A stretch of DNA of 64,000 bases from Capillimicrobium parvum (GTDB lineage Bacteria; Actinomycetota; Thermoleophilia; Solirubrobacterales; Solirubrobacteraceae). The stretch is taken from NCBI RefSeq assembly GCF_021172045.1, contig NZ_CP087164.1, positions 3,906,001-3,970,000 on the forward strand. Direction: 5' to 3'. Of the stretch, positions 23,064-31,688 are shown piece by piece (the first letter of the stretch is position 1; each line of letters starts with the position of its first letter). The notes beneath the pieces are model-generated. The model did not search any database, was not told where the DNA came from, and saw only the letters and a program-made list of their open reading frames with translations. The translations under genes were made by a program, and so were the position numbers.

Positions 23064-23134
23064 TGCGGGGTCGTCTAACGGCAAGACGCCTGCCTCTGGA
23101 GCAGGTTATCGGGGTTCGAATCCCTGCCCCGCAG
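23064..23134 (+). tRNA. tRNA-Gln (anticodon CUG)
   Basis: A 71-nt cloverleaf. Acceptor TGCGGGG (23064-23070) pairs with CCCCGCA (23127-23133), with G as discriminator base. The D-arm is GTCT...AGAC. The anticodon stem CCTGC/GCAGG encloses loop CTCTGGA, giving anticodon CTG at 23096-23098. The T-loop is TTCGAAT. CCA is not encoded. It reads CAG codons. Confidence 0.95.
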
Positions 23135-23696: not shown

Positions 23697-24935
23697 CTAG
23701 TGCTGGCCGCGACCGCTCGCGCCGTTGGCGTTGCCGTTGCCGTTGGCGTTGCCGTTGGCGTTGCCGTTGCCGTTGCCGTTGGCGTTGGCGTTGGCGTTGG
23801 CGTTGCCCTGCCCGTTGCCGTTGCCCAGCCCGTTGCCGTTGCCTTGGATCGGCGACGGCGCGGGCGCCGGAGCAGCCGGTGGGGGAGCCGGCGGAGCGCT
23901 CGAGGCGCCCTGCGGCGGCGGGGCGGGGCGGGGCGGCCCGTCGTTGCCGGTGCGCTGTGCTTGGGCGGGCCGCCGCGGCCCGTCGTTGCCGGTGCGCTGT
24001 GCTTGGGCGGGGTGCCCGCGTTCCGGCTTGCCGGTGCGCTGTGCTGGGGCGGGGTGCCCGCGTTCCGGCTTGCCGGTGCGCTGTGCGGGTGCGGGGTGCC
24101 CGCGTTCCGGCTTGCCGGTGCTGCGCTGGGGCGCGGCGACCGGCGGTGCCGCGTGGCTCGCCGCGCTCCGCTGTGGCGATCCCGCATGGGTGGACTGCCG
24201 CTGCGATCCACGGTTCGGCGAGGACCGCCGGTGATCGGCTTCGGATGTGGTGCGGCGCTCGCCCCGCGGTCGTGGCGCCGCGACCTCCGGGGTGGACACC
24301 GTTCGGTGCGCCCTCGCGGGCGAGCCCGTCGTACTGGTCCGCTGCGGGCTCGCCGTCGCACGAGCCGGCTCGCTGCCCGTCGCCGTCGGTGCCGCGGCCG
24401 GGGCCGCGGCGACGACGGCGGCGGCGGGCGCGGTCGGAGCGGTCGCGGGCGGCGTGCTCGGTGCCTGCGGTACCGGCGTGGTCTTGCGGGTGCCCGATCG
24501 GCGGCTTCGCTCGGCGCGGTCGATCCCGCGGGCGCCGGCGGCCGGGTGCAGACGATCCTCGCCGGCGGCCCGGGACCCGGCGCCGCGCGTCGCATCGGCC
24601 CCCGCGGCGGCCGGACCGAGCGGGCCGGTCACGCCGATCCGTCCGGTCACGGGTGCCGGGATCGCTCCTGCGGCGCGGTCAACGCCGGCGGAACCGCTCG
24701 CCGACGCGATAGCGGCGGGCGGCGGAAGCACCAGCGTTCCCTCGTCGCCCGCGGCACCACCGGACCAGCCGTCGGTCAGGGCGAAGAAGCCGCCGACGAA
24801 CAGCAGCAGTCCGGCGACGCCGCTCAGGGCGATCGCGGTCAGGCCGCCGGAAGCGAGAAAGGCGCGGGTTCCGTGCACGCCCCCGCGGTCGGCAGCAGCC
24901 GCGCGATCTTGAACTCGAACGATGGTCCACCGCAC
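23697..24935 (-). CDS. Repeat-built single-pass membrane protein of unknown function
   Basis: A 412-aa protein from GTG 24935. One hydrophobic helix (LTAIALSGVAGLLLFVGGFFAL, about residues 31-52) precedes a long, disordered Ala/Pro/Thr/Ser region. Five near-identical 14-residue repeats follow: three of RTGKPERGHPA(P/Q)AQ and two of RTGNDGPxRPAxxx. A Pro/Ala spacer and a terminal run of Gly-Asn/Ala-Asn dipeptides (about 55 residues) close the protein. No catalytic domain is visible. The layout suggests an anchored, extended surface protein. Both repeat arrays keep the reading frame (42- and 6-bp units), which argues for selection on the protein. Confidence 0.55.
   Translation of the reverse strand: MRWTIVRVQDRAAAADRGGVHGTRAFLASGGLTAIALSGVAGLLLFVGGFFALTDGWSGGAAGDEGTLVLPPPAAIASASGSAGVDRAAGAIPAPVTGRIGVTGPLGPAAAGADATRGAGSRAAGEDRLHPAAGARGIDRAERSRRSGTRKTTPVPQAPSTPPATAPTAPAAAVVAAAPAAAPTATGSEPARATASPQRTSTTGSPARAHRTVSTPEVAAPRPRGERRTTSEADHRRSSPNRGSQRQSTHAGSPQRSAASHAAPPVAAPQRSTGKPERGHPAPAQRTGKPERGHPAPAQRTGKPERGHPAQAQRTGNDGPRRPAQAQRTGNDGPPRPAPPPQGASSAPPAPPPAAPAPAPSPIQGNGNGLGNGNGQGNANANANANGNGNGNANGNANGNGNANGASGRGQH
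23722..23846. repeat. Hexanucleotide array (GTTGCC/GTTGGC)
   Basis: A run of 6-bp units, plus-strand CGTTGC or CGTTGG variants, encodes the Gly-Asn/Ala-Asn tail of the protein at 23697-24935. The array is in frame and likely length-variable by slippage. Confidence 0.8.
23935..24129. repeat. 42-bp in-frame tandem repeats
   Basis: Units such as GTGCCCGCGTTCCGGCTTGC recur every 42 bp and encode the 14-residue repeats of the same protein. Three units are near identical; two are a diverged variant. Confidence 0.75.
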
Positions 24936-25009: not shown

Positions 25010-25255
25010 TGCCGCCGCCGCCGGGTGTGGGGTGGACCGTACCGCACCACCGGACCATACGTGCCGCCGCCGCCCGGTCCGGGGGTGGACCGCACCGCAC
25101 CGCCTCCGGGGGTGGACCGCACCGCACCGCGTTCGGGGGTGCACCGCACCGCACCGCCTCCGGACGTGCACCACACCGCACCGCCGCCGGTCCGGGGGTG
25201 CACCACACCGCACCGCCGCCCGTCCGGGGGTGGACCGCACCGCACCGCGCTGGTC
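25010..25255. repeat. Intergenic minisatellite, 27/32-bp units
   Basis: Between the genes ending at 24935 and 25275 lies a tandem array. Units begin at 25081, 25108, 25135, 25162, 25194 and 25226, each starting G(G)GGGTGGACCGCACCGC or a one- to three-base variant; the first three are 27 bp and the next two 32 bp. A diverged unit starts near 25028, and GTGCCGCCGCC recurs at 25010 and 25061. There are no unique spacers. 24936-25009 and 25256-25274 hold nothing I can support. Confidence 0.8.
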
Positions 25256-25274: not shown

Positions 25275-26495
25275 CTACGGGCGCTCGAGATCCTGGGGCG
25301 TGACGCGCTCGCCCGACGCGATCAGCCGCCGGGCCTCGTCGAGGTCGTCGCCGCGACGGACCGACAACGCGCCGACCAGCCGTTCGCCCCGCAGGTACCA
25401 CATCGAGAAGGCGCCGGACTCGAACGAGCCGCGCAGCGCCTCGCGATCCCAACCCTCCGGCCCCACCACGCCGACGTACTCCGACGTCACCCAGTCGGCG
25501 ACGTCGGACCAGAAGTACGGGACCTCGGCGTGCTCGACGGGCTCGCCGCACATCCCGGCGGCGGCGGTCCGGCCGTGGCCCGCCGCGACCTCCCAGTGCT
25601 CGACGCGCGCCGGCCCGCCATGCAGCGGCGACTCCCACTCGCACATGTCCCCGGCCGCCCACAGCCCCTCGGCGCCGATCACGCGCAGCGACGCATCGCA
25701 GCGAACCCCGCCCATCGGCCCGATCTCCAGCCCCGCCGCCTTCGCCACCATCACGTCGGGCACGGCGCCCGCGGCCACCACGACCATCCGCGCCGGCAGC
25801 GACCTCCCGCCCGAGGTCAGCACCTCGGTCACCCGCTCCTCGTCGTCGCCCGCGAAGCCGGCCAGCGACTCACCGCCGACGAAGGTCACGCCCTCGCGCT
25901 CCAGCCGCGCCTGGAACCACTCCCCCGCGCGCCGGCCGTACGCCCGCTCGAGCGGCACGTCCTCCTGCATGAGCACCGTCACGCGCTTGCCCATGAGCGT
26001 CAGCGACGCGGCCAGCTCGGTGCCCAGATAGGACCCCCCGACGACGACCGCTTCCCGGCGGGCGGGACCGAGTCCCTCGGCGTCCTCGCGGATCGCGTCG
26101 GCGTTGCCCAGCGCGCGCAGGTAGTGGACGCCGTCGAGCTGCGCGCCGTCCACGGGCAGGCGCCGCACGTTCGCGCCGGTCGCCAGCAGCGCGCACCCGT
26201 ACGACACCTCCTCCTTCGTCGACAACCGCGCCACGCGCGCCGCCGCGTCGAGCTTCATGACGCTCGTCCGCGTGAGCACGTCGACGTCACCGGGCAGCGA
26301 GAGGTAGGTCGCGGGCCGCTCCCGTTCGCCGCGCAGGTACTCCTTCGAGCACGGCGGCCGGTCGTACGGCGGGTCGAGCTCGCGGCCCACGAGCAGCACC
26401 GACCCCGAGAATCCCCGCTCGCGCAGGGCGACGGCGCACGCGTGCGACGCCGCGCCGCCGCCGATCAGCAGCGCGTCTGCGTGCCGGTCAGCCAC
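25275..26495 (-). CDS. Ferredoxin-reductase-like FAD/NAD(P) oxidoreductase
   Basis: A 406-aa two-dinucleotide-domain flavoprotein. FAD motif LLIGGGAASHACAVAL at the N-terminus, NAD(P) motif VVVGGSYLGTELAASL near residue 150, ATGAN and the later GLWAAGDMCEWES (FAD contact), then a small C-terminal reductase domain. The family includes rhodocoxin/putidaredoxin reductases and AIF-like proteins. No ferredoxin or P450 gene is adjacent. The GTG start overlaps the end of the TrkA-like gene by 8 bp, so it is the last gene of the transporter operon. A redox link to that system is inference. Confidence 0.8.
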   Translation of the reverse strand: MADRHADALLIGGGAASHACAVALRERGFSGSVLLVGRELDPPYDRPPCSKEYLRGERERPATYLSLPGDVDVLTRTSVMKLDAAARVARLSTKEEVSYGCALLATGANVRRLPVDGAQLDGVHYLRALGNADAIREDAEGLGPARREAVVVGGSYLGTELAASLTLMGKRVTVLMQEDVPLERAYGRRAGEWFQARLEREGVTFVGGESLAGFAGDDEERVTEVLTSGGRSLPARMVVVAAGAVPDVMVAKAAGLEIGPMGGVRCDASLRVIGAEGLWAAGDMCEWESPLHGGPARVEHWEVAAGHGRTAAAGMCGEPVEHAEVPYFWSDVADWVTSEYVGVVGPEGWDREALRGSFESGAFSMWYLRGERLVGALSVRRGDDLDEARRLIASGERVTPQDLERP

Positions 26496-27159
26496 GGCGC
26501 ACGGGCGACGCGAACTGCGGCGTGATCGCCTCCTCCAGCCCCGGGTCGAGCACGAGCAGCACCTCGTCGCCGCCCTCGATCACGGTGTCGGCCTTGGGGA
26601 CGAAGCCGTCGCCGCCCCGCAGCACCGAGATGATCAGGCAGCCGTCGGGCAGCTCCACGTTCTGGACCTGCCGCCCCGCCGCCGGCGAGTCCACGGCCAC
26701 CTCGAGCTCGATGATCTCCAGCCGCTCCTCCTCGAGGGCGAGCAGGTGCACGAGCCCGTAGCGCGGCACCTCGTGCTCGATGAGGCGCAGGATGAGGTCC
26801 GTCGCGCTGACCGCCGGCTGGATGCCGAGCAGCTTGAAGTGCTGGAGGTTGCGGGGGTTGTTGACCCGGGCGATGATCCGGTCGACGAGGTACTTCTCCT
26901 TGGCGACCTGGCAGACGAGCATGTTGTCCTCGTCGTCGCCGGTGACCGCGATGACGAGGTCCGCCCGCTGGACGCCCGCCCGGTCGAGGACCCACAGCTC
27001 GGTCGCGTCGCCGTACTGCACGGCGTGCTCGAGCTCCTGCTCGATGACGAGGTAGCGGCGGCGGTCGCTCTCGATGAGCGTGACCTCCTCGCCCTTGTCC
27101 ATCAGCTCGCGCGCGAGGTTCCACCCGACCTTGCCGCCGCCCACCACGATGACGTACAT
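26488..27159 (-). CDS. TrkA-type RCK protein with N and C domains
   Basis: A 223-aa K+-channel/transporter regulatory protein. RCK-N Rossmann fold begins MYVIVVGGGKVGWNLAREL with the acidic end of strand 2 (LIESD), then GDATELWVLDRAGVQRAD. An RCK-C (TrkA-C) domain covers about 135-218. Such proteins bind NAD(H) or ATP and gate TrkH/KtrB-type channels from the cytosol. No TrkH or KtrB is present; the membrane proteins upstream are APC-type. ATG 27159 shares a base with the stop of the upstream RCK gene (TGATG). Confidence 0.85.
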   Translation of the reverse strand: MYVIVVGGGKVGWNLARELMDKGEEVTLIESDRRRYLVIEQELEHAVQYGDATELWVLDRAGVQRADLVIAVTGDDEDNMLVCQVAKEKYLVDRIIARVNNPRNLQHFKLLGIQPAVSATDLILRLIEHEVPRYGLVHLLALEEERLEIIELEVAVDSPAAGRQVQNVELPDGCLIISVLRGGDGFVPKADTVIEGGDEVLLVLDPGLEEAITPQFASPVRRG

Positions 27160-27581
27160 CAGTCGAGCCCCAGGGCCTTCTCGAACATGTCGATCGCGTG
27201 CGCGGTCGGCGAGATCGTCTCGAGCCCCTGCTCCGCGTACCAGGCGGCGCGCAGCGGGTCCATCACACGCACGATGACGCGCTCGACCTGGAAGCGGCGC
27301 GCCGCGATCTGCGCGATCACGAGGTTCGTGTTGTCGCCGTCGGTCGCGGCGATGAAGGCATCGGCATCCTCGACGCCGGCTTCGAGCAGCGCGTCGATCT
27401 CGAGCGCGGTGCCGACCGTGAAGCGCCCGCCCCGGTCCTCCCACGTCCCCTCCTCGCCCACGTCGAGACGTTCATGCGACAGAGGATCCTCGTCGAGGAC
27501 CGACACTTGATGGCCGGCGGCGAGCGCGGTCTTGGCTACCGCTGAGCCGACCCGCCCGGCCCCCACGATCAGGACGAACAC
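27159..27581 (-). CDS. TrkA-N-only RCK protein
   Basis: A 140-aa stand-alone RCK-N domain: MFVLIVGAGRVGSAVAKTAL, LDEDPLSH, then DADAFIAATDGDNTNLVIAQ. It lacks the C-terminal RCK-C domain of its neighbour, with which it probably forms a hetero-oligomer. GTG 27581 follows the transporter gene by 20 bp and the stop overlaps the next start, so the two RCK proteins are made together. Confidence 0.8.
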   Translation of the reverse strand: MFVLIVGAGRVGSAVAKTALAAGHQVSVLDEDPLSHERLDVGEEGTWEDRGGRFTVGTALEIDALLEAGVEDADAFIAATDGDNTNLVIAQIAARRFQVERVIVRVMDPLRAAWYAEQGLETISPTAHAIDMFEKALGLD

Positions 27582-27601
27582 GAGGCGGCACGGTAGCGCA
27601 A

Positions 27602-29584
27602 TCAGATCGCCGGCCGAGCCTCCTCCGCGGCGGGCGGGGCCGTGAGGATCACCGGGCACGGCGCCTTCGAGACCACGTACTTCGTGACCTCGCCCAGGAA
27701 GTTGTCGCGCGGCCCGGCCCGCCCGCCGAGCAGCGCGCCGCCGCGGATCCGGCTCGGCTCCTCCGCCGCCATGACGATCGCCTCGACGCCGCGGCGGCGC
27801 GCCTCCTCCACGATCGCCTGCCCGGCCCGCCGTGCGCGGACGGTGGCCGTGGCGACCTCGACGCCCTCGTACTCCTCCCCGACCGCCTTGGCCCGGGCGA
27901 GTGCGCCGCGCGCCCGCTTGAGCTGCTCGTCCGGCAGCCGCGCGTCGATCGGCAGCGCCATCGGCACCTCGAAGACCCACAGCGCCTCGATCGTCGCGCC
28001 CTCGCCCTCCGCCTCGTCGACGCCCTCCGCCGCGGCGAGGCGCCCGGCCGTCTGGACGATGTCGTCGTCGAGCGCGCCGCCGAGGATCGGCACGAGGATC
28101 GAGCCGTACTCGGCCTCGGTCGGCTCCGCGCGCAGGGCCGACTCGGGCACCGTGACCCGGGCGAACACGGGCTTCTCGTCGAGCTTGCGGTAGACGACGT
28201 AGAGCAGGACGCCGCCCACCATCCAGCCGAGGCCGACGTACCGAGCCGCATCGTGCAGGACGAGCACGCTGATGAACAGGGCGAACGAGATCACCGCGCC
28301 CGCGGCGGCCGGCACGGGAATGCGCCCGACGGTGAGCGGCATGCGGTAGGGGCGCTTGCGGTCGGGCTCGGTGATCCGCAGGCGCACGACCGAGAGGTGG
28401 GCGATGGTGAACGCGAGCGTCGCGCCGAACGCGTAGATGCCGACGAGAAAGTCGAGGTCGGCAGGGATGACCAGCGCGATCGCGAGGAGGGCGGCGATGG
28501 TGATGACGACGTACGGCGTCGCCCGCGTCGGGTGCAGGCGGCCGACCATGCTCGGGATCTGCCGGTTCGTGCCGAGCTGGTAGGCCAGGCGCGACAGGCC
28601 CAGCATCGCCGACTCGGCGGCCGCGATCAGCGTCACCGTCGCCACCACCGCGACGACGTAGCGCAGCCCGTCCGCCAGCCACGCCGGGTCCATCTGGCGG
28701 ACGAGGCCGAGCACCGGGGCTTCCTCGAACCGCGTCGAGAGCCGCGTCTCGCCGTTGACGACCGGCAGCGCAGTGATGGCGACGAGCGCGATGCCGAAGT
28801 ACACCAGCGTCACGGTGGCGCTCGCGCTCGTCACCAACTGCTTGAGGCCGCGGCGGCGGACGCCCACCTCCCCCGCGAGCCCTGAGGCCGACTCGAGGCT
28901 CGTGAACGCGACGGTCGCCAGCGTGAGGGCGAAGACGAGATCCGACCAGGTCGGCGCGGTGCCGAGATCGATCTGCGCGATCAGCAGGTCCGGGTCGAAG
29001 AACATCGCCAGGCCGAGGACGATGAGCAGCCCCTGCAGCAGGAGGTCGGCGATGACGATGATCAGCACGCCCTGCGCCCGCCTCGCCGAGAAGCCGCGCA
29101 CGTTGCGCACCGCGACCCAGGCGATGATCGCCGCGGCGACGAGGATCTCCGCGCCGCCGTTGGCCAGCGGCCGCCAGAACGCCTGCAGGTAGTTCGTCGC
29201 CGACAGCGCGCAGACCGCGATGAGGATCACGTAGTCGAGCAGCACGGCCCAGCCGGCGACGAAGCTCGTCAGCTCGTCGAACGCGTAGCGGGCGAACACC
29301 GTCGCGCCGCCGCGGTCCTGGTGCAGCGACGCCCCCTCGACGTACGTCATCGCGGTCAGCGCGAAGTACAGGCCGGCGGCGAGGAAGACGAACGGCGTCA
29401 TCCCCAGCGCGTAGGTGGCGACCACGCCGAGCGAGAAGTAGATCGCGCTGGCGATCGGCGTGTAGATGATCCCGAACAGGCGCGGCGAGCCGAGGGAGCG
29501 CCGGAAGAAGACGTCGCCGCGGTCGCTCAGGCGGCGGTCGCCGATCCGGTCGGTGAGGCGGTCGCTGAACCGGCGGTCGGCCAT
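27602..29584 (-). CDS. APC-superfamily transporter with C-terminal UspA domain (second)
   Basis: A 660-aa protein. Residues about 25-470 hold 12 TM segments of the amino acid-polyamine-organocation fold (SLGSPRLFGIIYTPIASAIYFSLG; TFTSLESASGLAGE). About 500-650 is a cytosolic universal-stress-protein fold (YGSILVPILGGALDDD ... ARRRGVEAIVMAAEEPSR ... VVSKAPCPVIL). APC-plus-USP architecture is shared by amino acid permeases and by the KimA K+ importer. Adjacent RCK genes make cation transport plausible (inference). ATG 29584 is taken because it overlaps the TGA of the 64-aa gene; an in-frame start 24 bp upstream is possible. Confidence 0.8.
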   Translation of the reverse strand: MADRRFSDRLTDRIGDRRLSDRGDVFFRRSLGSPRLFGIIYTPIASAIYFSLGVVATYALGMTPFVFLAAGLYFALTAMTYVEGASLHQDRGGATVFARYAFDELTSFVAGWAVLLDYVILIAVCALSATNYLQAFWRPLANGGAEILVAAAIIAWVAVRNVRGFSARRAQGVLIIVIADLLLQGLLIVLGLAMFFDPDLLIAQIDLGTAPTWSDLVFALTLATVAFTSLESASGLAGEVGVRRRGLKQLVTSASATVTLVYFGIALVAITALPVVNGETRLSTRFEEAPVLGLVRQMDPAWLADGLRYVVAVVATVTLIAAAESAMLGLSRLAYQLGTNRQIPSMVGRLHPTRATPYVVITIAALLAIALVIPADLDFLVGIYAFGATLAFTIAHLSVVRLRITEPDRKRPYRMPLTVGRIPVPAAAGAVISFALFISVLVLHDAARYVGLGWMVGGVLLYVVYRKLDEKPVFARVTVPESALRAEPTEAEYGSILVPILGGALDDDIVQTAGRLAAAEGVDEAEGEGATIEALWVFEVPMALPIDARLPDEQLKRARGALARAKAVGEEYEGVEVATATVRARRAGQAIVEEARRRGVEAIVMAAEEPSRIRGGALLGGRAGPRDNFLGEVTKYVVSKAPCPVILTAPPAAEEARPAI

Positions 29585-29778
29585 CAGCGCTGCCTCCGCG
29601 CGACCCACAGCCGCCCGGCGCCGGCGAGGACGAAGAGCACGCCGAGCAGGATGCCCAGCGCCCCGGGTCCGCCGCCGGCCGCGATCGTCCGCACGATCAG
29701 CGCGACGCCGATCACCACCAGCACCACCGACAGCACCTGCGTCCCGCCCCGGTGGACGTCGCGCCCTCTGGGAGCCAT
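29584..29778 (-). CDS. 64-aa two-helix membrane protein
   Basis: A short protein with two hydrophobic segments (VLSVVLVVIGVALIVRTIA and ALGILLGVLFVLAGAGRLWV) and basic ends (RGRD, RRQR). It is wedged between two transporter genes with one-base TGATG overlaps on both sides, so translation is coupled. Position suggests an accessory subunit, but I recognise no family. Confidence 0.6.
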   Translation of the reverse strand: MAPRGRDVHRGGTQVLSVVLVVIGVALIVRTIAAGGGPGALGILLGVLFVLAGAGRLWVARRQR

Positions 29779-31688
29779 CACGTCACCGCCGTGACGACGA
29801 GGTCGTCGTGACGGCTCGCCGAGCCCGGCGCGGAGACGACGATGACGCGGCACGGGCGCTGGGAGAGCACGGTCTCGACCGTGCGGCTGAACAGCGTCGC
29901 ACCGCCGCGGGGCGCGAGGGCCATGACGATCGCCTGCGCGCGCAGCGAGCGCGCCTCCTTGACGATCGTCGAGCCGGCCTGGCCGGCGCGCACCTTGACC
30001 CAGCGGCCGGTGACCCGCCGGCCGCCGTGCACCTTGGCCTGCTCGATCAGCTCCTGGGCGGCACGCTCCTGCGCGGGCAGCGAGGCGCCGATCGGCGAGG
30101 AGGCGGGGACGACGATGGTGACGAGCACGTGGATGCCGCGGCGGCGCCGGGCGGCGAGGCGCTTGGCCGTCGCCACGGCGGCGGCGTTGAAGTCGGTGGA
30201 GTCGAAGGCGACGAGGATGGACTCGTACTCGGCCTCGTGGTCGACGACCGGGCGCGGCACCGCGACCTTCTTCGTGGAGGTCAGGTCCAGGCCCTGGCTG
30301 CGGCGGTAGACGATGTAGACGCCGATTCCGAAGACGAGCCAGCCGATGCCGAAGGCCGAGACGACCGGGTTGCGCACGGCGAGCACGATCAGCGCGACGA
30401 GCGTGGCGCTGCCGCCGACCACGGCGAACAGCGGCACGTCGTAGCCGCGGATCGTGATGTTCCCCGGCCCCCGCCACGGCCGCTCCTCCCCGCTCGCCTT
30501 CCCGCGCAGCCTGATCACCGAGGCGTGGGCGATCGTGAACGACAGCATCGCGCCGAACGCGTACACGTTGCCCAGGAAGGCCGCCTGCCCGGGGATGAGG
30601 ACGATGCAGGCGATCGTGCCGAAGATCGCGATGCCGATCCAGGGCGTCCCGTAGCGCGGGTGCAGGCGGCGCAGGCCGTCGGGCATCTGGCGATGCAGCC
30701 CCATCGAGTAGACGAGCCGCGACACGCCGATGATGCCCGCGTTCGTCGCGATGAACAGGATGGTGGCGGCGAGGATGCCGACGTAGACCTCGATCGGCTG
30801 CTGGAAGATGCCGAGGTCGAGCTGCTTGACGACGCCGAGCACCGGATCGCCGGCGAAGCCCCCTTGGCTCTCCGGCTCGCCGAGCAGCGTCGAGTACGAG
30901 CCGTCGGCCTGCTGGGTGACCGGGAGCGCCGACAGGGCGATGGACGGCAGGACCGCGTAGATCGCGATGACGGCGATGACCACGCGCTTGATGGCGGCCG
31001 GGATGGTCTTGCGCTCGTCGCGCGCCTCCTCGGCCATGTTCGAGATCGTCTCGATCCCCGTGTAGGCGAGCATGCAGAGCGGAATCGCCACGAGGAAGTT
31101 CGACCACGTGGGCGCGATGCCGAACTTGACGTTGTCGACCAGCGTCTGGGGCGACAGGATCAGGAAGATCCCGACCAGCACCAGCAGCAGCTGCGTCATG
31201 AAGTCGATGATCGCCAGCGCGATGTTCACGCTCGCGGACTCCTGCACGCCGCGGACGTTGATGACGCTGAGGACGATGATCACGCCGATGCCGAAGAAGA
31301 TGTCGCCCGGCGAGTGGCGCAGCGGCTCCCAGAACAGTCCGCCGAGGTAGTGCGGGACGAAGAACGCCGACGTGGCGATCGTCATCGTGTAGGTGAGCAT
31401 CGAGCCCCAGGCCGCGAAGAAGGACCAGAACTCGTTGAACGCACGGCGGGCGAACGAGCTCGAGCCGCCCGCCTCCGGGTACATCGCCGTCGCCTCGGCG
31501 TAGGTCGACGCCGTCAGGAAGAAGATGAAGCCGCTGATGATGAAGACGATCGGCGTGAGGCCGAGCGCCAGCGACGCGACGAGACCGAGGGCGTAGTAGA
31601 TCGACGAGCCGACGTTGCCGTAGGCGGTCGAGAAGAGCGCGTTGACGCCAAGCACGCGCTGGAGACCATGAAGCCGGCGTTCGGCCAT
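29778..31688 (-). CDS. APC-superfamily transporter with C-terminal UspA domain (first)
   Basis: A 636-aa protein. It starts HGLQRVLGVNALFSTAYGNVGSSIYYALG, with the unwound TM1 glycine motif, then 12 TM segments with YTGIETISNMAEEARD in the TM6 region. A UspA-like domain (about 490-625) carries EYESILVAFDSTDF and SQRPCRVIVVSAPG. It is a paralogue of the transporter at 27602-29584, and the first gene of a six-gene minus-strand operon ending at 25275. Substrate could be amino acids or, by analogy with KimA, K+. 31689-31923 upstream holds its promoter region and nothing else I can support. Confidence 0.8.
   Translation of the reverse strand: MAERRLHGLQRVLGVNALFSTAYGNVGSSIYYALGLVASLALGLTPIVFIISGFIFFLTASTYAEATAMYPEAGGSSSFARRAFNEFWSFFAAWGSMLTYTMTIATSAFFVPHYLGGLFWEPLRHSPGDIFFGIGVIIVLSVINVRGVQESASVNIALAIIDFMTQLLLVLVGIFLILSPQTLVDNVKFGIAPTWSNFLVAIPLCMLAYTGIETISNMAEEARDERKTIPAAIKRVVIAVIAIYAVLPSIALSALPVTQQADGSYSTLLGEPESQGGFAGDPVLGVVKQLDLGIFQQPIEVYVGILAATILFIATNAGIIGVSRLVYSMGLHRQMPDGLRRLHPRYGTPWIGIAIFGTIACIVLIPGQAAFLGNVYAFGAMLSFTIAHASVIRLRGKASGEERPWRGPGNITIRGYDVPLFAVVGGSATLVALIVLAVRNPVVSAFGIGWLVFGIGVYIVYRRSQGLDLTSTKKVAVPRPVVDHEAEYESILVAFDSTDFNAAAVATAKRLAARRRRGIHVLVTIVVPASSPIGASLPAQERAAQELIEQAKVHGGRRVTGRWVKVRAGQAGSTIVKEARSLRAQAIVMALAPRGGATLFSRTVETVLSQRPCRVIVVSAPGSASRHDDLVVTAVT

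What the first reader, a model, noticed from the sequence alone, without database searches (positions are those of the whole stretch)
25275..31688. Coupled operon of two APC-UspA transporters, a 64-aa membrane protein and two RCK proteins
Six minus-strand genes lie at most 20 bp apart, five joints being one- to eight-base overlaps or a 20-bp gap. RCK proteins normally gate K+ channels, and KimA is a K+ importer with APC-plus-USP architecture, so this may be a previously undescribed two-transporter/two-RCK cation system with a small subunit and a redox partner.
Basis: partly seen in the sequence, partly recalled or inferred. Interest (0 to 1): 0.55.

Follow-up and report, generated by a model that had tools for sequence, protein, structure and literature searches.

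The report
RCK-linked twin potassium-transporter operon
A bacterium of the order Solirubrobacterales carries a conserved operon in which two related membrane transporters, a tiny membrane protein and a two-part potassium-sensing regulator probably work together as one regulated potassium uptake system; the function is inferred from sequence comparison and has not been tested.

Summary
In detail: six intact minus-strand genes with joints of -1, -1, +20, -1 and -8 bp. It is a conserved operon: 62 of 80 named relatives' loci keep APC1-APC2-RCK1-RCK2 in order, 58 with the small protein between the transporters. RCK1/RCK2 resemble the two-subunit TrkA ring TM1088A/B, but the genome shows no TrkH and no KimA.

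APC1 is not KimA by sequence. Yet it keeps eight of ten KimA K+/H+-site residues in 110 or more of 114 sequences, lacks the essential TM1 aspartate D36, and has an aspartate (D162) in TM5 where three of four solved amino-acid APCs checked have lysine. Elsewhere in the phylum RCK pairs lie beside true KimA. In one related genome KimA stands beside an RCK pair of the APC type.

Best explanation: an RCK-gated, proton-coupled K+ importer of a new APC-USP subfamily, perhaps an APC1/APC2 heterodimer. Substrate, gating and heterodimer are inferred. The reductase is a weak part (25 of 63 loci).

The parts
29778..31688 (-). APC1: LeuT-fold transporter domain plus C-terminal USP domain (636 aa); probable K+ carrying subunit
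   Evidence: Pfam PF13520 and PF00582; 114-sequence alignment with 8 of 10 KimA site residues kept; AlphaFold model mean pLDDT 85.4, pTM 0.72; KimA 8b71 Z 42.6, rmsd 12.6, 513 aligned, about level with ApcT 3gia Z 41.6, rmsd 2.5, 412 aligned
29584..29778 (-). 64-aa small membrane protein, two hydrophobic stretches joined by a GGG loop (read from the alignment)
   Evidence: no Pfam hit above cut-off, no NCBIfam hit; family profile finds it within 300 bp of APC1 or APC2 in 25 of 36 class APC loci, four of these with weak scores, and before RCK1 in 4 of 4 pyrophosphatase-type loci; BLAST-detected on the same strand in 67 of 75 complete loci
27602..29584 (-). APC2: diverged APC-USP paralogue (660 aa), site partly altered (KimA T121 equivalent is L, V or I in 81 of 81)
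   Evidence: Pfam PF13520 and PF00582; 81-sequence alignment; clade with APC1
27159..27581 (-). RCK1: TrkA_N domain without TrkA_C (140 aa), GxGxxG nucleotide-binding motif
   Evidence: Pfam; best PDB match TM1088A, E 2.1e-19; alignment A2
26488..27159 (-). RCK2: TrkA_N plus TrkA_C (223 aa)
   Evidence: Pfam; PDB matches TrkA (E 2e-38) and TM1088B (E 4.1e-28); APC-type clade in the RCK2 tree
25275..26495 (-). FAD/NAD(P)-dependent ferredoxin-reductase-type oxidoreductase (406 aa); optional member
   Evidence: Pfam PF07992, PF14759; within 400 bp of RCK2 in 25 of 63 complete loci with room for it; stays with RCK1-RCK2 in L084

Best explanation
The operon encodes one regulated K+ import system. 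APC1 and APC2, LeuT-fold transporters with USP tails, sit in the membrane. APC1 carries K+ together with protons through a site built like that of KimA (Y23, Y100, T103, S107, T210, E213, N217, Y376), with the missing TM1 carboxylate D36 made good by D162 in TM5. APC2 is a diverged partner, possibly a heterodimer mate. RCK1 and RCK2 form a two-subunit nucleotide-sensing ring of the TM1088A/B type under the membrane that opens or shuts the transporter according to NAD(H) or ATP/ADP state (ligands recalled from TrkA/Ktr work, not tested), and the 64-aa protein is an accessory subunit. Shown here: gene order, conservation, residue pattern, no TrkH or KimA match in the genome, exchange with KimA in one relative. 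Inferred: K+ as substrate, proton coupling, ring formation, gating, heterodimer, role of the small protein.
For: Order conserved in 62 of 80 named loci. In 61 class genomes 32 of 34 with an APC match have RCK2 (E 1e-50), 2 of 27 without (not corrected for kinship); RCK lies beside APC in 27 of 34. Own genome: no TrkH match, no KimA match at E 1e-30. Of 34 APC genomes 18 lack both TrkH and KimA and 14 of these also lack KdpA. KimA occurs in 3 of 34 APC genomes against 13 of 27 others. Site: APC1 keeps 8 of 10 KimA residues in 110 or more of 114 sequences; four solved permeases, two haloarchaeal APC-USP proteins and two other permeases keep 0 to 2 of the eight. A KimA homologue lies beside the RCK pair in 15 of 40 loci that I chose from other classes. 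In G021 (L082) a KimA with all ten residues stands beside an RCK2 that nests among APC-linked RCK2 (97/96*). In three relatives a histidine kinase with DUF4118 lies between two APC1 genes (that DUF4118 is the KdpD membrane domain is recalled).
Against: By profile score KimA ranks 28th of 49 PDB matches, behind amino-acid transporters, and APC2 finds no KimA at E 0.001. D36, essential in KimA (PMC6994465, passages), is N, P or G in 101 of 114 APC1. Five relatives of one family keep APC1 on another contig than the RCK pair, and in four of them the pair follows a pyrophosphatase gene; L173 and seven other named loci with room show no RCK pair next to APC. Other RCK pairs of the phylum lie beside TrkH or P-type ATPases, so linkage alone does not name the partner. 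13 of 34 APC genomes do have TrkH. The own genome has KdpA; Kup was not searched. No c-di-AMP riboswitch at Rfam cut-offs in five sources; the c-di-AMP signature is in 0 of 14 RCK2 rows, in 2 of 14 with two mismatches allowed.
Confidence: 0.62

Rival explanations
1. APC1/APC2 transport another cation or a charged organic solute (for example ammonium/methylammonium, Na+-coupled osmolyte or polyamine) and the RCK ring adjusts this transport to the energy or K+ state of the cell.
For: The transporter clade is neither KimA nor the amino-acid permeases tested; D36 is lost and a TM5 aspartate is family-specific, so selectivity may differ; KdpA exists in the own genome.
Against: Eight of ten KimA site residues are kept; 14 of 34 APC genomes show no TrkH, KimA or KdpA, so they would need another K+ importer (Kup not searched); KimA stands in for the pair beside an APC-type RCK pair in G021.
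Confidence: 0.18
2. APC1/APC2 are ordinary amino-acid permeases and the RCK genes only lie beside them by history; the RCK ring serves a K+ channel or transporter elsewhere in the genome.
For: Profile searches rank amino-acid transporters first; fold comparison puts KimA about level with ApcT; five relatives of one family have APC1 and RCK unlinked.
Against: Site residues unlike those of GkApcT, CAT4, BasC and xCT, with the TM5 lysine of three of them replaced by aspartate; APC and RCK2 co-occur in 32 of 34 genomes, the five unlinked ones included; no TrkH match in 21 of 34 APC genomes.
Confidence: 0.12
3. APC1/APC2 act as K+ sensors or receptors (transceptors) for the RCK/USP module and carry little flux themselves.
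For: USP tails, diverged APC2 site, DUF4118 kinase between two APC1 genes in three relatives.
Against: In APC1 both putative coupling acids are nearly invariant (E213 in 111 and D162 in 112 of 114), as expected of a working carrier; 14 of 34 APC genomes show none of the three other importers searched.
Confidence: 0.08

Closest known systems
KimA (YdaO) K+/H+ symporter of the KUP family, B. subtilis (PDB 6s3k, 8b70, 8b71)
   Same: LeuT fold plus cytosolic domain matched over the whole length (8b71 Z 42.6, rmsd 12.6, 513 aligned); eight of ten K+/H+ site residues; KimA homologues elsewhere in the phylum also lie beside an RCK pair
   Different: D36 absent, TM5 D162 present; Usp tail by Pfam where KimA has a PPAT-like domain; separate clade; two tandem paralogues and a small protein
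CeoB/CeoC 'Trk' system of M. tuberculosis with adjacent Rv2690c
   Different: RCK1 here has no TrkA_C, while the RCK1-type protein of L253 has one; there the transporter gene is divergent and single in L253. That Rv2690c itself is KimA-like is recalled, not tested
TM1088A/TM1088B two-subunit TrkA ring of Thermotoga maritima
   Same: One TrkA_N-only and one TrkA_N+TrkA_C subunit with overlapping start and stop codons (PMC4380455, passages; PDB matches)
   Different: Its membrane partner is a TrkH (TM1089); the window genome shows none
Haloarchaeal APC-USP 'amino acid permeases' (e.g. Natronorubrum daqingense plasmid, L269)
   Same: APC domain followed by Usp domains; in L269 TrkH, TrkA and two USP genes lie close by
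   Different: 22-25% identity (L269 and L268); one of the eight KimA-type residues kept; branch with other permeases
KhtTU / KefC: RCK-regulated K+/H+ antiporters
   Same: Work-like precedent: an RCK domain regulating a secondary K+ transporter (KhtTU: PMC10117811, passages; KefC recalled)
   Different: K+/H+ antiporter for efflux, not an APC-fold importer

Membership tests
KimA subfamily of KUP K+/H+ symporters | K+-binding aspartate D36 in TM1 | tested here: not met
   N 64, P 20, G 17 of 114 APC1 sequences at the aligned position
KimA subfamily of KUP K+/H+ symporters | other K+ site and proton-coupling residues (Y43, T121, S125, T230, E233, Y377; tunnel Y118, N237) | tested here: met
   APC1: 112, 113, 113, 114, 111, 113; 110, 113 of 114. 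APC2 meets them only in part: T121 equivalent 0 of 81, E233 equivalent 72 of 81. D117 equivalent is D in 14 of 114 APC1 and 81 of 81 APC2
KimA subfamily of KUP K+/H+ symporters | clusters with KimA sequences | tested here: not met
   KimA one clade (100*), APC1+APC2 another (92); tree unrooted and flagged for long branches
KimA subfamily of KUP K+/H+ symporters | PPAT-like cytosolic domain, domain-swapped homodimer | tested here: inconclusive
   Pfam Usp in both transporters; fold match runs through the KimA cytosolic domain at high rmsd; oligomer not testable
KimA subfamily of KUP K+/H+ symporters | K+/H+ symport | not testable with these tools
   needs uptake assay
Characterised amino-acid APC transporters (CAT, LAT, ApcT) | APC/LeuT fold with AA_permease domain | tested here: met
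   PF13520/PF00324; ApcT 3gia Z 41.6, rmsd 2.5, 412 aligned
Characterised amino-acid APC transporters (CAT, LAT, ApcT) | clusters with them and shares site residues, e.g. TM5 lysine | tested here: not met
   separate clade from GkApcT, CAT4, BasC, xCT; K in GkApcT, xCT, BasC and N in CAT4, D in 112 of 114 APC1
Two-subunit TrkA (TM1088A/B type) ring | adjacent TrkA_N-only and TrkA_N+TrkA_C subunits with GxGxxG | tested here: met
Two-subunit TrkA (TM1088A/B type) ring | partner TrkH channel | tested here: not met
   no PF02386 match in the genome; none in 21 of 34 APC genomes
Two-subunit TrkA (TM1088A/B type) ring | octameric ring and nucleotide-dependent gating | not testable with these tools
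   needs biochemistry
c-di-AMP-regulated RCK_C proteins | RCK_C c-di-AMP signature (as printed in PMC10117811) | tested here: not met
   0 of 14 RCK2 rows; 2 of 14 with two mismatches allowed

The most novel reading that the evidence does not exclude
RCK rings, known as gates of K+ channels and antiporters, also regulate LeuT-fold K+ importers: in many Actinomycetota a two-subunit RCK ring works with KimA, and in Thermoleophilia with a new APC-USP pair whose K+ site has moved its carboxylate from TM1 (D36) to TM5 (D162). This would give the orphan CeoB/CeoC 'Trk' proteins of mycobacteria their missing membrane partner.
Probability: 0.5. Interest if true: 0.78.

Novelty: new variant of a known kind. 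Interest (0 to 1): 0.6.

Why it matters
If right, it names a K+ importer for bacteria in which searches for TrkH, KimA and KdpA found none (14 of 34 APC genomes), extends RCK control to a transporter fold not linked with it in the papers found, and makes a clear prediction for the unexplained TrkA pairs of actinobacteria (the mycobacterial Trk system is described as two TrkA proteins). The D36-to-D162 exchange is a directly testable case of a binding-site carboxylate that moved to another helix.

Tried and rejected
c-di-AMP riboswitch as K+ evidence: at gathering score the window and four relatives gave only tRNAs. c-di-AMP signature in RCK2: 0 of 14 rows. Fold search to decide KimA versus permease: KimA and ApcT come out about level (Z 42.6 and 41.6), so not decisive. 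Extending the APC-USP family beyond the class: no match outside the class at E 1e-40 or 1e-70 in a 296-genome phylum sample, but at most four candidates per genome were scored, so this is a weak negative. Rooting APC1/2 against KimA: not possible on an unrooted tree with three separate groups; that tree also warns of long branches (own-genome permeases L003, L004, and BasC). Promoter/terminator scan: nothing found, uninformative at this G+C. Divergent MarR-like neighbour as a conserved regulator: my script read the wrong frame, so no conclusion. The second structure job was not used.

Rows dropped or chosen: the RCK2 tree (first with 60 rows, then with 59 rows and the careful method, which I quote) uses loci to which I gave one partner label, plus the window. 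Left out: loci with mixed or no recognised partner (L228-L230, L239, L240, L245, L248, L251, L264-L267), several further class loci with APC and RCK (L047, L050, L076, L078, L079), truncated or unlinked ones (L083, L084, L087, L089, L090), and L093 (its ATPase is only a fragment at the contig end). Some TrkH-labelled loci also hold a pyrophosphatase or ATPase gene further off. The 40 phylum loci were chosen by me from 226 genomes with a match, not drawn at random. One own-genome permease (L003) did not align.
Full report
Observation. The window carries six intact minus-strand genes from 31688 to 25275 with joints of -1, -1, +20, -1 and -8 bp. Families: APC1 and APC2 are AA_permease_2 plus Usp, RCK1 has TrkA_N without TrkA_C, the last gene is a ferredoxin-reductase-type flavoprotein; RCK2 is TrkA_N plus TrkA_C, and the 64-aa protein reaches no family. 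APC1 and APC2 are 37% identical. The genome is one 5.95-Mb contig; its nearest named relatives are Solirubrobacterales.

Conservation. A scan of named genomes kept the best 80 of 540 confirmed matches. In 62 of 80 loci APC1, APC2, RCK1 and RCK2 follow each other on one strand, in 58 with the small protein detected. Of the other 18, ten stop within about 80 bp of the end of the fetched DNA inside the operon; L173 has APC1-small-APC2 but no RCK in the 5.8 kb beyond; L177, L178 and L188 have APC1 alone; L187, L194, L200 and L224 carry a second APC1-like gene without RCK, and in L194, L200 and L224 a histidine kinase with DUF4118 lies between the two copies. Some of these records are the same genomes as in the class sample, so the sets are not independent. 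Over both sets (116 loci) 75 have all four genes on one strand, 67 of them with the small gene by BLAST on that strand; of 63 with at least 1.3 kb beyond RCK2, 25 have the reductase within 400 bp. With a profile, the small protein lies within 300 bp of APC1 or APC2 in 25 of 36 class APC loci (not counting one spurious hit in L055): between the transporters in tandem loci, just upstream of APC1 in single-transporter loci such as L070, L077 and L080; four of these hits (L074, L076, L079, L081) are weak and rest on position. It is also found just before RCK1 in L085, L086, L088 and L089, where the transporter is unlinked.

Co-occurrence in the class. In 61 genomes 34 have an APC-type match at E 1e-40 or better and 34 an RCK2-type match at E 1e-50 or better. 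32 of the 34 APC genomes have RCK2 against 2 of 27 others (kinship not corrected). The two APC genomes without RCK2 (G008, G041) have the APC locus near a contig end, G041 with RCK1 still present. RCK lies beside APC in 27 of 34; the exceptions are G005, G008 and five genomes of one family in which the two are on different contigs. The two RCK2 genomes without APC are G021, which has KimA beside the RCK pair, and G051, where a pyrophosphatase gene and a TrkH lie nearby.

K+ inventory. TrkH (PF02386) has no match in the own genome nor in 21 of 34 APC genomes; 13 have it. KimA (E 1e-30) has no match in the own genome nor in the ten order relatives of the sample; it occurs in 3 of 34 APC genomes and 13 of 27 others. 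18 of 34 APC genomes lack both, and 14 of those also lack KdpA; the own genome has KdpA. Kup and simple K+ channels were not searched.

The RCK pair. RCK1 matches TM1088A (E 2.1e-19); RCK2 matches TrkA (E 2e-38) and TM1088B (E 4.1e-28). TM1088A/B form a two-subunit octameric ring whose membrane partner is the TrkH TM1089 (PMC4380455, passages). In the phylum sample 226 of 296 genomes have an RCK2-profile match at E 1e-30. In 40 loci that I chose, 15 have a KimA homologue beside the pair (L241, L244, L246, L249, L250, L252-L259, L262, L263), 11 have TrkH beside it without KimA (some with a pyrophosphatase or ATPase gene further off), six have a P-type ATPase beside it (two of them with TrkH as well), and the rest show mixtures, fragments or nothing recognised. 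The 17 KimA-like ORFs are 35-44% identical to the printed parts of B. subtilis KimA and all keep D36 (the L258 alignment stops before TM6, and one ORF of L244 has A at D117). The RCK2 tree groups sequences by partner: five label changes where four is the least possible and shuffles average 32.2. Taxonomy is confounded with partner, so the telling row is L082 (G021): its partner is a KimA with all ten site residues, but its RCK2 sits inside a starred seven-row set (97/96) whose other six rows are APC-linked, within the 25-row APC-type clade (100/99). This reads as an exchange of transporter on the same kind of regulator; synteny of the surrounding genes was not compared.

The transport site. 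KimA residues are taken from PMC6994465 (passages): D36, Y43, T121 and Y377 at the K+, E233 for proton coupling, T230 and S125 nearby, Y118, N237 and D117 in the tunnel. APC1, 114 sequences: Y23 112, Y100 110, T103 113, S107 113, T210 114, E213 111, N217 113, Y376 113; the D117 position is N 84, D 14, T 10; the D36 position is N 64, P 20, G 17. TM5 has D162 in 112 and Q166 in 113 of 114, where GkApcT, xCT and BasC have lysine, CAT4 asparagine and KimA phenylalanine. That this lysine replaces the Na+ of LeuT in ApcT is recalled. The four solved permeases, two haloarchaeal APC-USP proteins, a permease of G016 and one of the own genome share 0 to 1 of the eight residues; in the alignment xCT shares 2. 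APC2, 81 sequences: D117 equivalent 81, T121 equivalent never T, T230 equivalent 65, E233 equivalent 72, TM5 aspartate 68. So APC1 looks like a KimA-type site with its carboxylate moved, and APC2 like a modified partner.

Against. Profile scores put KimA 28th of 49 PDB matches, and the tree keeps APC1/2, KimA and permeases as separate groups, with long-branch warnings, so APC1/2 are not members of KimA. Fold comparison does not separate KimA (8b71 Z 42.6, rmsd 12.6, 513 aligned) from ApcT (3gia Z 41.6, rmsd 2.5, 412 aligned). RCK pairs with other partners show that linkage alone does not prove regulation.

Mechanism. Most likely APC1, perhaps with APC2 as a heterodimer, imports K+ with H+, and the RCK1/RCK2 ring under the membrane couples its activity to the nucleotide state; the USP tails may bind nucleotide as well; the small two-helix protein is an accessory subunit; the reductase is optional and its role is open. 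Only the anatomy and the comparative pattern are shown here.

Literature. CeoB and CeoC are described as the Trk system of M. tuberculosis (PMC8358298, passages). Searching the text of three CeoBC papers found no mention of Rv2690 (PMC12136442, PMC6375644, PMC13163235); PMC12216072 names ceoB and the adjacent Rv2690 together (passages); two further papers that hold the term Rv2690c (PMC11878324, PMC13308281) were seen in a listing only. In S. venezuelae a KimA-like protein Vnz_27465 and an RCK_C protein Vnz_27460 bear neighbouring numbers but are not linked in the passages seen; there, of six RCK_C domains only CpeA and Vnz_28520 are said to bind c-di-AMP (PMC10117811, passages). Among the rows listed by searches I saw no paper that describes an RCK pair working with KimA or an APC-USP transporter; these lists are capped and the library lacks most subscription papers.

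Noticed in passing
L091, L092, L094, L095, L096, L097 (whole ATPase), L093 (fragment); L237, L239, L240, L245, L248, L261: An RCK1/RCK2 pair lies beside a P-type cation ATPase gene in several Actinomycetota (Pfam checked for L091, L092, L095; the others by BLAST); an RCK-regulated P-type pump would be unexpected.
   Followed up: partly
L085:1992-5441, L086:5769-9239, L088, L089: In one genus the order is membrane pyrophosphatase - small protein - RCK1 - RCK2, while APC1 sits on another contig (Pfam for L085; 89-91% identical pyrophosphatase in the other three).
   Followed up: partly
L194, L200, L224: Two APC1-like genes flank a histidine kinase with DUF4118; no RCK pair was detected in the fetched DNA.
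   Followed up: partly
L244, L246: Two KimA-like genes lie on the same side of one RCK pair, so tandem transporter pairs also arise with KimA.
   Followed up: no
L269:2176-8940: Haloarchaeal APC-USP 'amino acid permease' on a plasmid close to TrkH, TrkA and two USP genes.
   Followed up: no
window 25078-25248 and 23921-24142: GC-rich tandem arrays (27-bp and 42-bp units) just past the operon and inside a low-complexity minus-strand ORF 24935-23697.
   Followed up: no
window 23064-23134: A tRNA gene lies about 2 kb beyond the operon; the four relatives scanned (L159, L164, L180, L189) also have one within about 2.5 kb of the operon's end.
   Followed up: no
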